DNA of 64,000 nt, taken from assembly GCA_026004415.1 (NCBI GenBank), contig BPJC01000002.1, positions 124,001 to 188,000 of the forward strand, given 5' to 3'. The position numbers were made by a program, and so were the translations under genes. The notes under the pieces were generated by a model, which had not been told where the DNA came from, searched no databases, and saw only the letters and a list, made by a program, of their open reading frames with translations. The stretch's first letter is position 1, and every line of letters begins with the position of its first letter. Shown here piece after piece: positions 1 to 24,777 of the stretch. This DNA comes from Patescibacteria group bacterium. GTDB lineage: Bacteria; Patescibacteriota; Microgenomatia; UBA1406; GWC2-37-13.

Positions 1-570
1 TTCTCCCACAAATTATCAAAATATTCCTCTATCTTTTCTGTATATATTTCCGGAAGCTCAACATTCAATTCATCCTGTTCTAAAAGACCTGCTTTTGTTA
101 GATTACTGCTTCCAATTATGGTTATTTTCCTTATAGGTTGATCTTTTTTAGTAATAAAAATATATACTTTTGCATGATTTGGATTATAAGTTTTTCTTAT
201 AACTAGTTTTTGCTTTCTTATCAACTCAAGAAAGTATTTTGCTTCTCGGTATACTTCTTTATTATCCAAATCCTCCGAAGTTAAAGATTTTTTAATCGAA
301 AAAAGATAATCTAAAACTTTTTCATTCCTGCTTTGATTATTCTCTTCTGCTGATACCTCTACTAGCCCTCTATTAGTTTTATCAACATTCAACCCAACTA
401 ATATTTTCAACTGTGTTTCTGGATTTTTTTTAAGATTTTCATATAAAACTCGGAAACCAGAAAAATAAAAAAAAGCTGTCAGTATTTTTAATTCCTGCGT
501 GGCAGGTATTAGTTCTGATAATCTTTTATTTAAAGTTTTAGTATTTTGATTTGTAATAAAAGTGGCCATT
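1..570 (-). CDS. PLD-like (HKD) domain protein, N-terminal part, cut by window edge
   Basis: The reverse strand is open from an ATG at 570 to the left edge, giving the first 190 residues; the C-terminus lies outside the window. Near residue 130 it shows an HxK element (NHAKVYIF) followed by GSSNLTKAGL, the usual active-site layout of phospholipase D-like nuclease/phosphodiesterase domains. The N-terminal style (a stretch leading to FRVLYENL and LKILVGLN) is typical of PLD domains placed before superfamily 2 helicase modules in restriction- or defence-related proteins, so a helicase may follow outside the window; that is inference. A 166-bp AT-rich gap separates it from the divergent gene at 737. 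Confidence 0.7.
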
Positions 571-19598: not shown

Positions 19599-19675
19599 GC
19601 GCGCGTAGCTCAGCTGGTTAGAGCGCAGTCCTGATAAGACTGAGGTCGATGGTTCGAGTCCATCCGCGCGCACCA
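19599..19675 (+). tRNA. tRNA-Ile (anticodon GAT), CCA encoded
   Basis: A full cloverleaf of 77 nt. The acceptor stem pairs GCGCGCG (19599-19605) with CGCGCGC (19665-19671), the D arm is TAGCTCAGCTGGTTAGAGC, the anticodon loop centres on GAT, and the T arm contains GGTTCGAGTCC. The discriminator A is followed by an encoded CCA, unlike the other three tRNA genes in the window. The defence operon lies directly on its 3' side. Confidence 0.96.
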
Positions 19676-19761: not shown

Positions 19762-22152
19762 TTATAAATTAAGACCTAAATATTGCTTAATTTTGCCTTT
19801 TAATTCATTCCACGAAGTTGAGCCATCTTTGGGGTAATGAGCCAATCCGCCGGTATTACAATAGTTATAGATCTCCAGTATAATCCTTTTATTATTTATT
19901 AATCTCTCAAATTTTTCTGTCCCATTTTTAGCTACTTTTTCAATCATATTGGACAGTTTATCTTCAGAGTATCCAAAATATCCTTCTTTGATTTTAGTCT
20001 CTAAACAAAAACGTAATTTTTGCCCGAACACAATTATATTTTCGTCACTCCCTGAGACTGAGTCAATTTGATTAAAATCTTCTTCGAATTTATCACAGAC
20101 CAAATTTATAAACCTTTCAGAATCCTTTGTTTTATAATGATGGATCGATGAAGCGCCAAAAGTTTTAAAAATATAATAAAAATTCCTGTTACTGATTTGT
20201 TTTAAACAATATTCTCTAAATAGCGGATCGCAAGTAAATATAAAGACTTGGGAAAAATCTTTAGTTTCTCTTTCTATTATTTCTGAGGTTGACTTCCTTT
20301 TGCCAGCATCAAAACTAGTTATAGGATCATCAAAAACTATAATTTTGTTTTTATCTCTTAATTTTTGTAATCGTGCAAAGAAAAATGCCAATGCAATAAC
20401 TTGTTTCTCGCCCTCGCTTAGTTTACTCGTACGGTCTTCTCCGTTATATTCAACACGAAAACCACATTGAGCAGGATTCCTGGGATTTCTCCTATCGTAA
20501 GTTGCTTGTCCTTGTATTTCAAATATATCCATTGAGGGGCTTATTTCTTTAACAAACTGCTTAATTAGAGAGAAATATTCGGAGACAAATTCATTAAACT
20601 GCTCTACTATTTTCTCTTTAAGAAGTTGGTAAATTTTTTCTAAAGATTCAACAATTTCGTTATTTTTATTGTATTGTTCTTTAGCTTTGAAAAAGTTTTC
20701 TAAACTTTTTTTGTTTTCAGCATAAAACAATTTCTTTTCAATATCTTTAATTTTATTCTCTATCTCTGCTTTTTTAGCAACAAGTTTTCCTGTCTCAATA
20801 TCTTTTTGTAATTCCCTGACTTTTCTGTTTATGTCATCAACTAACTCATTATATTTTTTAATATCTCTATTAACCCTATCAATAATTCTTTCGATTTCTT
20901 TAAACTTCGTCCCTCCGATCTTATCTAGTATTTTTCTTTCTTTCTTTAAAACCAAATTAAGTTCGTCTCTAACAATCGTCTTTTCAGTCGTCGATAATTT
21001 TACTTCTGGTAAATCATCAATACTTATTGCGATAAAGGATTTAATAGTTTGTAATCCTGTTTGATTATTTAATGGAGACTGTAAATCTAATAGATTTTCT
21101 AAAATTCTCCGATAGCTTCTTAATAAAGTTTTAACTTTTTGTTCTTCTTTAAAAAAAGTTTCGTTGAAGATATTTTGATAATCTTTAATTATTTGTATAA
21201 AATCACCGTTTCTAATTTTCTGTTCGCAAAAAGGACATTCATTTGTTTCTTTTGTGATTAAGGAGAGCCCGTGTTTAATAAAATCTTTCTTGTGGGCAAT
21301 TTTATGTAAAGTTTGTTGTATACCGCGGGATATTGTAAAAGAAAATAAATCAATAGGATTTATTTTTGTCGTACCCTCATTTGTTGTTTGTATTTCTAAA
21401 GAAAAGTTTATTTCTATTCTCGAAAGCAAAGAAATTTTGGATAGTTCTGACTTCTTCTTTAATGCTTTGTCAATTTTACCAAGAATATCATTTTGATTTT
21501 TAAGTTGTTGTTTTATAACCGGAAGATCATCTTCTCTTAAACCTTTTATTAGTTCTTTATCTTGTTCTAATTGATCTACTGTGATACTTTGTTTGCGTAA
21601 GATTGTTTCAAGGCTTATTCTTTCCTTTTCTAAAAATAATCTGTTCTTTTCTGAAATATAGCTTTTTAGGTTATTTATCTTTTCTATCTCATTATGGTAA
21701 TCATTAAAATTACCTAAGAATATTATTGACCTTCCCCTTTGTTGTCTACGTTGGGGAGAGTCTATATATTCTGGCCCTATAGCATGAACATATTTATCTA
21801 CAAAATATTTATCAAAGATCAAAAATTTCCTTTTTAGTTTATCTCCGTTAGTCCACTGCGAGTTATCAAATTCAATTTCCGATTCATCATCCAGAATTAC
21901 TTTTATATATTGTTTATCATTAGGTGGGCGATCCCAATTTCTTTTAAGCTCAATACTTTCTCCATTGAGAGATTTAAAAATATCAACCAATTTTGATTTT
22001 CCGCTTCCATTTTCAGCGAAAAAGATATTGTATTTTTTGAAATTATCATCAGGATTATTGGAATTATTACCACGATCTACATTAATCTCGTCCCAATTGA
22101 AAGAGAAGAAAGAAAAAACATTATCTATTTTTGCTATTTTCTTGATTATCAT
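19762..22152 (-). CDS. RloC/PrrC-like AAA ATPase, candidate anticodon nuclease
   Basis: A 796-residue SMC/Rad50-like ATPase. Walker A is AENGSGKSK (about 47-55), a long coiled coil carries a single CPFC zinc-hook-like motif near 305, the ABC signature is LSEGEKQVIALAFF near 576, and Walker B is IIVFDDPITSFD near 607. The last 100 residues hold RFCLE (R714, E718) and LAHYP (H772), matching the R-x3-E...H residues described for the anticodon nuclease PrrC, with a longer spacing before the His. Known PrrC/RloC proteins cut tRNA at the wobble position when a restriction system is inhibited or DNA is damaged. It is the last gene of a restriction-modification operon and overlaps the 57-residue ORF by 32 bp. 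ATPase family assignment is firm; nuclease activity is inference. Confidence 0.82.
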   Translation of the reverse strand: MIIKKIAKIDNVFSFFSFNWDEINVDRGNNSNNPDDNFKKYNIFFAENGSGKSKLVDIFKSLNGESIELKRNWDRPPNDKQYIKVILDDESEIEFDNSQWTNGDKLKRKFLIFDKYFVDKYVHAIGPEYIDSPQRRQQRGRSIIFLGNFNDYHNEIEKINNLKSYISEKNRLFLEKERISLETILRKQSITVDQLEQDKELIKGLREDDLPVIKQQLKNQNDILGKIDKALKKKSELSKISLLSRIEINFSLEIQTTNEGTTKINPIDLFSFTISRGIQQTLHKIAHKKDFIKHGLSLITKETNECPFCEQKIRNGDFIQIIKDYQNIFNETFFKEEQKVKTLLRSYRRILENLLDLQSPLNNQTGLQTIKSFIAISIDDLPEVKLSTTEKTIVRDELNLVLKKERKILDKIGGTKFKEIERIIDRVNRDIKKYNELVDDINRKVRELQKDIETGKLVAKKAEIENKIKDIEKKLFYAENKKSLENFFKAKEQYNKNNEIVESLEKIYQLLKEKIVEQFNEFVSEYFSLIKQFVKEISPSMDIFEIQGQATYDRRNPRNPAQCGFRVEYNGEDRTSKLSEGEKQVIALAFFFARLQKLRDKNKIIVFDDPITSFDAGKRKSTSEIIERETKDFSQVFIFTCDPLFREYCLKQISNRNFYYIFKTFGASSIHHYKTKDSERFINLVCDKFEEDFNQIDSVSGSDENIIVFGQKLRFCLETKIKEGYFGYSEDKLSNMIEKVAKNGTEKFERLINNKRIILEIYNYCNTGGLAHYPKDGSTSWNELKGKIKQYLGLNL

Positions 22153-22294
22153 GTTTACTTATCTTAAAATTAAGAATACCTACAGCTTCAATATCTTTTA
22201 TAATTTTTTCGATGCTTTTATTAGTGCAAATAATTTCAGCAAGTTGCTTTTCTTTATCATCAAGAGAATTTTTTATCAGATCAAGCAAGTTCAT
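22121..22294 (-). CDS. Small ORF (57 residues) between endonuclease and RloC-like gene
   Basis: The start ATG lies 2 bp after the endonuclease stop, and the end overlaps the RloC-like gene by 32 bp, so it is positioned as a coupled operon member. The protein is charged and helical (LLDLIKNSLDDKEKQLAEII, then IEKIIKDIEAVGILNFKI) with a single Cys; it has no recognised domain. Its placement just upstream of a toxin-like ATPase makes a regulator or antitoxin-like role possible, which is inference. It could also simply link translation of the two large genes. Confidence 0.55.
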   Translation of the reverse strand: MNLLDLIKNSLDDKEKQLAEIICTNKSIEKIIKDIEAVGILNFKISKHDNQENSKNR

Positions 22295-22296
22295 AT

Positions 22297-23424
22297 TTAC
22301 TCTTCTGAAATAAAATTATAAGTTTTCTTAATAGAGGGAATAGTTTGATAAATAGAAACTATAGGCTCTAAATCTAAATTATTTCCATAATAATAAAGTA
22401 GATCTTGGATAAGATCCTCTATAATGTTGATAACAAAAAGCGAGTACCTTGTGTCGTTTAAGGGGGGTAGGGTTTTGTCTGATTGAAAAGATCCGTCTTC
22501 TTTTGAAAATCCGATCACTTGATCTCTTATCTGTTTTAATCCGGCTACTAGTTTTTTCAACTCATTTTCCTTTAGTTCTACTCGCGGATAAAGAAAGTCT
22601 AAGCTATATACTAGTTGAAATAACCCGTAAGAGTTTAACTCTTCGTCTATGAAAGATAGAAGATATATTAACCACAAATTAGCATTCACGGGGGTTTTCT
22701 CTATGTGATTAAGAGTAAAACATACCTTAAAAAATCCATCTAAACTTTTAGGTACGATCTTTAATATTTTATCTTCGTCGATAACTTGTTGTAATAAATG
22801 AGATAATTTTTCTTTTTCAATCTCGATAGCTTCGTGTTGGAAGTTGAGTATAAAGATTTTTTTATCTATTAGCTCGCAAACAGATTTAAGTTTATTGTCT
22901 TTTTTCAATATCTTTTCAAACTTATCTCTAGAAACTCTAAAAACTGGAGCGTTGCCCCAGGCGGCGGCGACCGTTTGCGTAGAATTTTTAGCTATCCAAG
23001 CAGGGTCCAAAAGCGCATATTGATGGGTTGGCTTAATGATGTATAAAATTTTTGTATCTTCTTTGGGAACCCTTTTCTTTAATCTTCTATCCTTTGGAGC
23101 AATCTTTGAAATTTTAAAATCATAAGCATTTAATTCCTCTTTTGCGTATTGAAATTCTATATACTTAACCTCTCCATCTGGATATTTAACAATAAAATCT
23201 GGATCCCTTGTTATTCCTCCCTTTCTCAAAAACCATATAAACTTATCACCGCCAAATTTTTCTACAACAGCATATTTATTTTCTTCCCGAATTTTCTCTC
23301 TAATCCAAGGTAAAACCTCCAGCTCTGCAATAGCTTTTTGTTTCATATCTTTACGATACTCAAGATATGTCCTTGATTTAATATCACTTGATTGGGCGTA
23401 TATTGTCTTTGTATCTAAATCCAT
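22297..23424 (-). CDS. Putative type II restriction endonuclease, PD-(D/E)xK-like
   Basis: A 375-residue protein located 4 bp after the DNA methyltransferase. Residues 74-92 read DPDFIVKYPDGEVKYIEFQ: P75-D76 followed 14 residues later by E90-F-Q92 gives a PD-(D/E)xK-like core in which Gln replaces the usual Lys. The preceding GGDKFIWFLRKGGITR fits the strand before it. The remaining 280 residues, mostly helical, could hold the target-recognition part. I do not recognise the subfamily. Its partner gene and the operon context support the restriction role; the specificity is unknown. Confidence 0.68.
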   Translation of the reverse strand: MDLDTKTIYAQSSDIKSRTYLEYRKDMKQKAIAELEVLPWIREKIREENKYAVVEKFGGDKFIWFLRKGGITRDPDFIVKYPDGEVKYIEFQYAKEELNAYDFKISKIAPKDRRLKKRVPKEDTKILYIIKPTHQYALLDPAWIAKNSTQTVAAAWGNAPVFRVSRDKFEKILKKDNKLKSVCELIDKKIFILNFQHEAIEIEKEKLSHLLQQVIDEDKILKIVPKSLDGFFKVCFTLNHIEKTPVNANLWLIYLLSFIDEELNSYGLFQLVYSLDFLYPRVELKENELKKLVAGLKQIRDQVIGFSKEDGSFQSDKTLPPLNDTRYSLFVINIIEDLIQDLLYYYGNNLDLEPIVSIYQTIPSIKKTYNFISEE

Positions 23425-23428
23425 AGTT

Positions 23429-24481
23429 TTAAATAAATAGCTTAGTCTGGTAATTATTTAAATTTTTAATTGCGACCTCTGCTATTTCGGGCACTATCTC
23501 ATAACCAACACCATTTCTTTTAAGATCAGCAGCCGTTTTTAGGGTGGTGCCGCTCCCCAAAAATGGATCTAACACTACCTCCCCCACAAAAGAAAATGCT
23601 TTTATAATTCTATAAGGTAATTCATAGGGAAAAGGGGCAACATGCGATCTACTATCTCCGCTATTTTGGGGTTTCATTGTCCAAACATCGGTATTTTTTA
23701 TACTCAACCAAAATTCTTTATCAAGCTTGGATTCCTCTTTTTGTTTTTTGGTTAAGTGTTCGTATTTATTAAAACCTTTCCTGTCCGGCTTATTAAATTC
23801 CAGAATAAATTCATGCATGTTATTTATCAAAATTCCCCCGGGATATGGATATGTCCCAAAATGAGCTCTAACTCCATGTGTTTTATGCCAAATAATATCT
23901 CTTTTGAAAATAAAACCAATTTTCTCCATCAGGTCTATAGTTCTCCCAACTAAATTTAGTGACTTAAAACCATTACTATTATCTCTTACTGGTAGATTCA
24001 TAATATTTATAAAGGCTTTTCTGCCGGGCTGTAATACCCTAAAAACTTCTCTCCACACAATGCCTATTTTTTCAAACCATTCATCTAAATTATGAATGTT
24101 TCCCAAGTCATTTTCTATGGGTTTTTTAGTGTACATTTTAGCGTCAAAATAAGGAGGTGAGGTAATCATCAAATGAATCGAGTTGTCCTCTAACTCTTCC
24201 ATTTTCATTGCATTTTTTACATAGATCTTCTGTGTAGTGCCGTTTATGTTTAGTATGTTTTCTGTTGGAATGCTTTTCTTTTTAGTTTTTCTGTTCTGAT
24301 AAGGATATTCCGCTTCATATTTTTTTAATTCTTTCAAATCAAATCTTTTTTGACCACTTGCGGCTGTAATACATTTAATTTTTTTAGCTCTAACTAAACC
24401 GTGTAGCTTCTGTACGGTAATACCTAAATATTTTGCCGCTTCTGTAGATGATAAATATTTTCTTTCTTTGTAATCGTTCAT
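23429..24481 (-). CDS. DNA methyltransferase (N4-C or N6-A, beta-type order) with N-terminal HTH
   Basis: A 350-residue modification enzyme. Residues 8-55 form a MerR/excisionase-type helix-turn-helix (LSSTEAAKYLGITVQKLHGL, ending in a SGQKRFDLKELKKY wing). The catalytic motif IV is TSPPYF at 107-112, and the SAM motif LDPFLGSGTTLKTA follows near residue 310, so the order is beta-type. SPPY is most common in N4-cytosine enzymes but also occurs in some N6-adenine ones. The HTH fusion may let the enzyme bind its own promoter or help choose targets. It precedes the endonuclease gene by 4 bp. Confidence 0.92.
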   Translation of the reverse strand: MNDYKERKYLSSTEAAKYLGITVQKLHGLVRAKKIKCITAASGQKRFDLKELKKYEAEYPYQNRKTKKKSIPTENILNINGTTQKIYVKNAMKMEELEDNSIHLMITSPPYFDAKMYTKKPIENDLGNIHNLDEWFEKIGIVWREVFRVLQPGRKAFINIMNLPVRDNSNGFKSLNLVGRTIDLMEKIGFIFKRDIIWHKTHGVRAHFGTYPYPGGILINNMHEFILEFNKPDRKGFNKYEHLTKKQKEESKLDKEFWLSIKNTDVWTMKPQNSGDSRSHVAPFPYELPYRIIKAFSFVGEVVLDPFLGSGTTLKTAADLKRNGVGYEIVPEIAEVAIKNLNNYQTKLFI

Positions 24482-24499
24482 AAGTTTTACTTAACGAAA

Positions 24500-24664
24500 T
24501 CAATCACTAATTCTTATCCCTAGATATTTATCAATTTTCTCTAGTTCTTCAAGTGTTGGGTTAGATTTTCTTTTGTTTCTCTCTTGACAATTGTATTTAA
24601 GGCTAAACCAGGTTCTTTGAATGGGCGATCTTGGAATATACTTTTTTTTTGGCGCAGTTTGCAT
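24500..24664 (-). CDS. Small leader ORF (54 residues) of the restriction operon
   Basis: The frame runs from an ATG at 24664 to a TGA 18 bp before the methyltransferase ATG. The predicted protein is basic at the start and has a helical acidic C-terminus (NPTLEELEKIDKYLGIRISD); the composition looks like a real protein, with Trp, Cys and Tyr. No helix-turn-helix of the usual controller type is visible. A second frame that starts at 24690 with a good Shine-Dalgarno overlaps it and shares an A9 run with it; a -1 slip at that run would join the two into one protein of about 62 residues. Confidence 0.45.
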   Translation of the reverse strand: MQTAPKKKYIPRSPIQRTWFSLKYNCQERNKRKSNPTLEELEKIDKYLGIRISD

Positions 24665-24690
24665 CTTTTTTTTCCGATCTTATTTGTCAT
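24541..24690 (-). other. Overlapping alternative leader frame with Shine-Dalgarno (49 codons)
   Basis: This ATG is preceded by AAGGT about 7 nt upstream, the best ribosome-binding site in the operon. The frame reads MTNKIGKKRCKLRQKK and then passes the A9 run at 24642-24650 into a less protein-like sequence ending at TAG. It is either the true entry point, followed by a frameshift into the 24500-24664 frame, or a chance overlap. Confidence 0.3.
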
Positions 24691-24748
24691 ACTTTTACCT
24701 TGAAATATACAAATTTCACTTTAGTACGTTTATAATTTATTTACTACA

Positions 24749-24777
24749 ATAATAACTGATTTCCCAATCATAGTCAA
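24749..24777 (-). promoter_or_regulatory. Promoter of the restriction/RloC-like operon
   Basis: On the minus strand, TTGACT (24777-24772), a 17-nt spacer and TATTAT (24754-24749) form a near-consensus housekeeping promoter. The predicted start near 24742 leaves a leader of about 50 nt with a Shine-Dalgarno before 24690, unlike the leaderless promoters of most genes in this window. Confidence 0.65.

What the first reader, a model, noticed from the sequence alone, without database searches (positions are those of the whole stretch)
19762..24777. Compact operon joining a type II-like R-M pair with a RloC/PrrC-like ATPase
One promoter (24749-24777) drives leader ORF(s), an HTH-fused DNA methyltransferase, a PD-(D/E)xK-like endonuclease, a 57-residue ORF and a Rad50-like ATPase with a candidate anticodon-nuclease triad. 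The two large junctions are 4 bp and 2 bp, and the last overlap is 32 bp. Known PrrC sits inside a type Ic hsd operon and RloC is often near type I/III systems; the pairing with a two-gene type II-like system in a candidate-phylum genome, plus small unannotated ORFs, may be an undescribed arrangement. A reading is that the ATPase senses failure of restriction and stops translation.
Basis: partly seen in the sequence, partly recalled or inferred. Interest (0 to 1): 0.82.

Follow-up and report, generated by a model that had tools for sequence, protein, structure and literature searches.

The report
Type II restriction operon plus RloC-like RNase
A candidate-phylum bacterium has acquired, beside a tRNA gene, a two-gene restriction system joined in one operon to a predicted tRNA-cutting suicide ATPase; such ATPases are known to accompany restriction systems, usually of other types, so this is a new combination of known parts rather than a new kind of system.

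Summary
The operon is real. An HTH + N6_N4 methyltransferase (23429-24481) and a novel endonuclease (22297-23424) form a mobile type II R-M pair, conserved as a pair in nine other genome contigs from several phyla. The ATPase (19762-22152) is RloC-like: ABC motifs, CPFC zinc hook and R714-E718-H772. That triad gives the three most conserved C-terminal columns in 20 homologues, and the C-terminal domain is 70% identical to the nearest relative (about 40% overall). A same-genus genome has the empty site beside tRNA-Ile, so everything lies in one insertion. The pairing is new in my sample: no R-M relative carries the ATPase (three cannot show it), and the ATPase's nearest relative has no R-M. But RloC-like ATPases sit in R-M operons in 6 of 12 other Patescibacteria loci: five type I and one HpaII-like type II with Vsr. 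So type II linkage is not unique. Sensing of restriction failure is unproven; published RloC biology favours sensing of DNA ends. One deviation: the ABC switch histidine is cysteine here and in one relative. New variant of a known kind.

The parts
24749..24777 (-). promoter-like site TTGACT-17-TATTAT
   Evidence: same position in relatives L013 and L014, kept even where L014 has lost most of the controller gene
   Evidence: intact homologue L013:160-375
23429..24481 (-). DNA methyltransferase, N-terminal HTH_17 plus N6_N4_Mtase domain (TSPPY, DPF-GSGTT motifs)
   Evidence: PF01555 1.5e-42 and PF12728 2.1e-07; PADLOC MTase_II 2.6e-62; 68-96% identical in 9 relatives
22297..23424 (-). putative restriction endonuclease, 375 aa, PD-x13-ExQ site, no known family
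   Evidence: no Pfam, NCBIfam or PADLOC match; always next to the MTase; invariant P75 D76 E90 Q92; model pLDDT 81; weak PD-(D/E)xK-type fold matches
22121..22294 (-). 57-aa ORF, possible coupling ORF, unproven
   Evidence: coding score 0.30 per codon, 2 of 53 spurious ORFs reach it; no homologue
19762..22152 (-). RloC-like ABC ATPase with zinc hook (C306-P-F-C309) and C-terminal R714-x3-E718-x53-H772
   Evidence: PF13166 5e-32; PADLOC PDC-S06 1.5e-30; motifs
19599..19675 (+). tRNA-Ile(GAT) with encoded CCA, edge of the insertion
   Evidence: empty site in same-genus G498, 48 bp versus 5367 bp

Best explanation
A horizontally acquired, about 5-kb two-layer defence cassette next to tRNA-Ile. 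Layer 1 is a type II R-M pair: the HTH-methyltransferase marks a DNA site, and the 375-aa endonuclease cuts unmarked foreign DNA. Layer 2 is an RloC-like ATPase: its Rad50-like head and zinc-hook coiled coil sense DNA ends or DNA damage, and its C-terminal R-E-H nuclease then cuts tRNA anticodon loops and stops translation. Shown: gene order, family motifs, triad conservation, single-locus insertion, decay of the controller gene. Inferred: co-transcription, both enzyme activities, tRNA as substrate. I think it likeliest that the trigger is DNA ends (phage-made, or made by the endonuclease itself) rather than direct sensing of a disabled restriction enzyme.
For: R-M pair: MTase families; pair kept together in 9 contigs across phyla; endonuclease differences from L013 concentrate in third codon positions (29/13/78), as expected under selection. 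ATPase: Walker A, signature, Walker B and zinc hook conserved, and R714, H772 and E718 are the three best columns of the C-terminus in 20 homologues, the next best being 14/20; C-terminal domain 70% identical to G236 versus 22-55% elsewhere. Linkage: tight junctions; empty site in G498; related ATPases inside type I hsd operons in five genomes and in an HpaII-type operon in G132. Trigger: RloC activated by linear DNA and breaks, independent of R-M (PMC3874168); triad and zinc-hook mutants tested in PMC2610378.
Against: No expression or activity data. The exact R-M plus ATPase combination was seen once: none of the 9 R-M relatives carries the ATPase, though L019 and L020 end inside the endonuclease and the L021 copy is broken, and the nearest ATPase relative has no R-M. 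The switch histidine, present in 18 of 20, is cysteine here, so the ATPase cycle may differ. The controller gene is broken, so expression may be altered. If every restriction cut triggered arrest, successful restriction would be costly.
Confidence: 0.6

Rival explanations
1. PrrC-like guard: the R-M proteins hold the ATPase silent, and phage anti-restriction factors that disable them release the tRNA nuclease.
For: Operon linkage; related ATPases embedded between hsdS and hsdR of type I systems in G148, G212, G173 and G341; PrrC precedent reviewed in PMC12707154.
Against: No type I complex here; type II MTase and endonuclease usually act separately; the R-M relatives exist without this ATPase and its nearest relative lacks R-M; RloC activation was R-M independent (PMC3874168).
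Confidence: 0.2
2. Two independent defence modules that only share an insertion hotspot and a transcript; no functional coupling.
For: Each module occurs without the other; the third-gene slot is variable: L013 and L014 carry an unrelated ~773-aa protein there; the cassette sits beside a tRNA gene in 5 of 7 loci with visible flanks.
Against: 2-bp junction and overlapping ORFs; recurrent embedding of RloC-like ATPases in R-M operons of types I, II and III.
Confidence: 0.3
3. A decaying cassette: the controller is already dead and the ATPase, with a changed switch residue, may be inactive.
For: Controller frameshift and stop; Cys in place of the switch His.
Against: All other ORFs are intact; the C-terminal domain is the most conserved part of the ATPase; G236, which shares the Cys, is also intact; the controller is also absent or broken in relatives with intact MTase genes.
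Confidence: 0.12

Closest known systems
RloC (Geobacillus kaustophilus, Acinetobacter baylyi; PMC2610378, PMC3874168)
   Same: ABC head split by a coiled coil with a CXXC hook; C-terminal R-x3-E...H; 796 aa lies within the published 658-897 range.
   Different: E-to-H spacing 53 (published 36-52; 49-54 in several homologues here); switch His replaced by Cys; linked to a type II pair. The published survey found 8 of 72 linked to type I or III loci.
PrrC in the EcoprrI type Ic locus
   Same: ABC ATPase with an R-E-H nuclease triad inside an R-M operon.
   Different: PrrC has no zinc-hook insert (341-416 aa) and is described as invariably linked to type Ic; no hsd genes here.
HpaII-type R-M + Vsr + RloC-like ATPase (G132, L066:8158-13147)
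   Same: Type II R-M operon ending in a zinc-hook ATPase with the R-E-H triad.
   Different: m5C methyltransferase and a known HpaII endonuclease; ATPase from a different PDC-S06 subgroup with an N-terminal extension.
PADLOC candidate PDC-S06
   Same: The ATPase matches PDC-S06 models at 1.5e-30.
   Different: PDC-S06 is a candidate defence protein in that library, given no mechanism; here it is the last gene of an R-M operon.

Membership tests
RloC | ABC ATPase Walker A, signature and Walker B/D-loop | tested here: met
   N48, G51, K52, S579, D608, D609, P610, D615 conserved 19-20 of 20
RloC | coiled-coil insert with CXXC zinc hook | tested here: met
   C306-P-F-C309, Cys in 19 of 20 homologues; coiled coil itself not predicted with a dedicated tool
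RloC | C-terminal R-x3-E-x(36-52)-H triad | tested here: met
   R714, E718, H772; 20, 18 and 19 of 20; spacing 53, one beyond the published range
RloC | linchpin/switch histidine after Walker B | tested here: not met
   Cys641 here and in G236; His in the other 18. Filed therefore as RloC-like, not canonical RloC
RloC | anticodon nuclease activity, Zn and DNA-end response | not testable with these tools
   needs biochemistry
PrrC | type Ic hsd linkage and no zinc-hook insert | tested here: not met
   no hsdM/S/R in the operon; 796 aa with CXXC; only weak N6_Mtase match in the genome, an Eco57I-type protein
Type II R-M | adjacent MTase and endonuclease inherited together, without S or helicase subunit | tested here: met
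   pair in all 9 related loci; one of them, L021, has a broken endonuclease
Type II R-M | PD-(D/E)xK or other nuclease active site | tested here: inconclusive
   invariant P75 D76, E90 F91 Q92; sub-threshold fold matches only
Type II R-M | site-specific methylation and cleavage | not testable with these tools
   needs methylome or enzyme assay
C-protein-controlled R-M | intact XRE controller gene | tested here: not met
   frameshift and premature stop; intact in L013, 3' remnant in L014, truncated in L020

The most novel reading that the evidence does not exclude
A type II restriction enzyme and an RloC-like nuclease work as one circuit: DNA ends made by restriction (or left when restriction is overwhelmed) switch on tRNA cleavage, so a simple two-gene R-M system gains a dose-dependent suicide arm. 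The third-gene slot of this R-M cassette would then be a socket for interchangeable backup effectors, RloC-like here and a 773-aa protein in L013 and L014.
Probability: 0.25. Interest if true: 0.65.

Novelty: new variant of a known kind. Interest (0 to 1): 0.42.

Why it matters
RloC has been described as rarely tied to R-M, and then to types I and III. Here RloC-like ATPases sit in R-M operons in half of the Patescibacteria loci examined, twice (this window and G132) with type II partners. That makes it testable whether type II restriction can feed an RNA-targeting abortive response. It also adds an unclassified, phylum-hopping restriction endonuclease family that is often found beside tRNA genes.

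Tried and rejected
Looked for the ATPase in all nine R-M relatives: absent, with L019 and L020 ending inside the endonuclease and L021 broken. Looked for R-M relatives in 380 Patescibacteria genomes by profile: only the window; none in plasmids, phages or viral contigs. Endonuclease fold without an alignment was poor (pLDDT 43); with 9 sequences pLDDT 81 but no significant PDB match. Rejected: leader ORFs as new peptides (pseudogene); ATPase as plain Rad50/SMC (the C-terminal triad domain is extra); the G236 neighbourhood as an R-M locus (none found). No direct repeat longer than 8 bp at the island edges. A programmed frameshift in the leader was considered: the shift coincides with a 1-bp deletion relative to L013 and a second disabling stop, so decay is simpler. 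A sequence comparison with a characterised RloC could not be made; only published motif positions were used. A C-terminal sub-alignment for a PDB search failed on coordinates and was not repeated. Other phyla could not be searched as whole genomes.

Full report
Observation. Two short ORFs lie upstream of the MTase. The promoter-like site 24777-24749 is not distinguished by the scan itself (30 sites found, 27 expected), but the same -35/-10 spacing is kept in L013 and in L014, where most of the next gene is gone.

Leader. The closest relative, L013, has one intact 71-aa XRE-type regulator at this place (HTH_3 3.4e-16). The window copy aligns over its whole length but has a 1-bp deletion and a TTA-to-TGA change; it is 75.5% identical, while the MTase is 95% and the endonuclease 89% identical at the DNA level. 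L014 keeps only a 3' remnant and L020 a truncated copy. The controller is therefore dispensable; the HTH fused to the MTase may regulate instead (inference).

R-M pair. The MTase carries HTH_17 and N6_N4_Mtase and matches PADLOC type II MTase models; solved relatives include N4-cytosine and N6-adenine enzymes. The endonuclease matches no family. One scan of 84,980 genomes gave nine relatives at 54-94% identity in Shapirobacteria, Bdellovibrionales, Tariuqbacter, Syntrophosphaera, Omnitrophota, a deltaproteobacterium and one unnamed bacterium, every one with the MTase directly upstream. Its alignment has invariant P75-D76 and E90-F91-Q92, an ExQ variant like that of BglII (own knowledge, not tested). 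A 9-sequence model reached pLDDT 81. PDB matches were not significant; viral-library matches, all above E 0.001, included NO VEIN C-terminal-domain and RecU-type proteins, both PD-(D/E)xK folds. The pair is a mobile type II-like system; activity is inferred.

ATPase. AAA_13 (5e-32) and PADLOC candidate PDC-S06 (1.5e-30). With 12 other Patescibacteria loci and seven plasmid homologues (20 proteins in all), the invariant or nearly invariant positions are Walker A, signature, Walker B, both hook cysteines and R714, H772, E718; in the last 137 residues the triad takes the top three places (20, 19, 18 of 20; the next is 14). Against the nearest relative (G236, about 40%) the C-terminal domain is 70% identical, the coil and hook segments 22-30%, the heads 39-55%. 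This is the published RloC anatomy (PMC2610378). One motif departs: the switch histidine is cysteine here and in G236 only.

Context. In a same-genus genome (G498) tRNA-Ile is followed after 48 bp by the next gene; in the window the gap is 5367 bp, with synteny on both sides. The controller remnant, R-M pair, ORF57 and ATPase thus lie in one insertion. The R-M cassette lies beside a tRNA gene in 5 of 7 loci with visible flanks. No relative of the pair carries the ATPase, although L019 and L020 are cut off inside the endonuclease and L021's endonuclease is broken; L013 and L014 have a different ~773-aa gene in that slot.

R-M linkage of RloC-like ATPases. Of 12 other Patescibacteria loci, five (G148, G212, G231, G173, G341) lie in type I hsd operons (gene types judged from order and motifs), one (G132) closes an operon of m5C MTase, HpaII endonuclease and Vsr, one (G265) follows a Vsr gene, one (G200) lies beside a divergent MmeI-type enzyme, and four have none. 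On plasmids, one lies beside a type I locus, one abuts a type III-like pair, one follows an MTase and helicase, and others stand alone (for example). These plasmid loci were hand-picked, so they are not a frequency estimate.

Mechanism. Restriction by the pair is the first layer. For the second, RloC is activated by linear DNA and double-strand breaks even in R-M mutants (PMC3874168), so a DNA-end trigger is better supported than sensing of restriction failure, which rests on PrrC. Neither has been tested for this protein.

Novelty. Known: RloC and PrrC, their R-M linkage, and the backup idea (PMC3710099, PMC3506569, PMC12707154). New here: a type II partner of unclassified specificity, a second independent type II case (G132), decay of the controller, the variable third-gene slot, and the cysteine switch. 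A search for papers that join RloC with type II restriction gave six, none of which I found to describe such an operon, but only two of the six were looked into beyond the title for this point. Verdict: new variant of a known kind, interest 0.42.

Noticed in passing
window 19599-19675; L014 1451-1526; L015 6663-6739; L020 6652-6736; L021 8676-8752: The R-M cassette sits within a few hundred bp of a tRNA gene in 5 of 7 loci with visible flanks, although no integrase is present; all five of these tRNA genes encode CCA.
   Followed up: partly
L013 2684-4858; L014 3944-6265: A ~773-aa protein of no known family, with a zinc-ribbon-like CxxC pair and a GECKS motif, occupies the third-gene slot after the endonuclease where the window has ORF57 and the ATPase; in L013 its start is frameshifted.
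   Followed up: partly
G000:C2:117521-124410 (L081), overlapping window 1-410: A second defence-like pair: 1226-aa Eco57I/type IIG-like methyltransferase and a 1070-aa PLD-SNF2 helicase resembling DrmD and BrxHI, overlapping by 4 bp.
   Followed up: partly
L066 8158-13147 (G132): HpaII-type R-M + Vsr + RloC-like ATPase in one co-oriented operon.
   Followed up: partly
window 20230-20232 (ATPase codon 641): ABC switch histidine replaced by cysteine only in this protein and G236 among 20.
   Followed up: partly
L020 6866-7996: The truncated controller gene runs in frame into the MTase, possibly giving a controller-MTase fusion.
   Followed up: no
L017 2383-3549: A second, distantly related methyltransferase gene follows the R-M pair in Tariuqbacter.
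   Followed up: no
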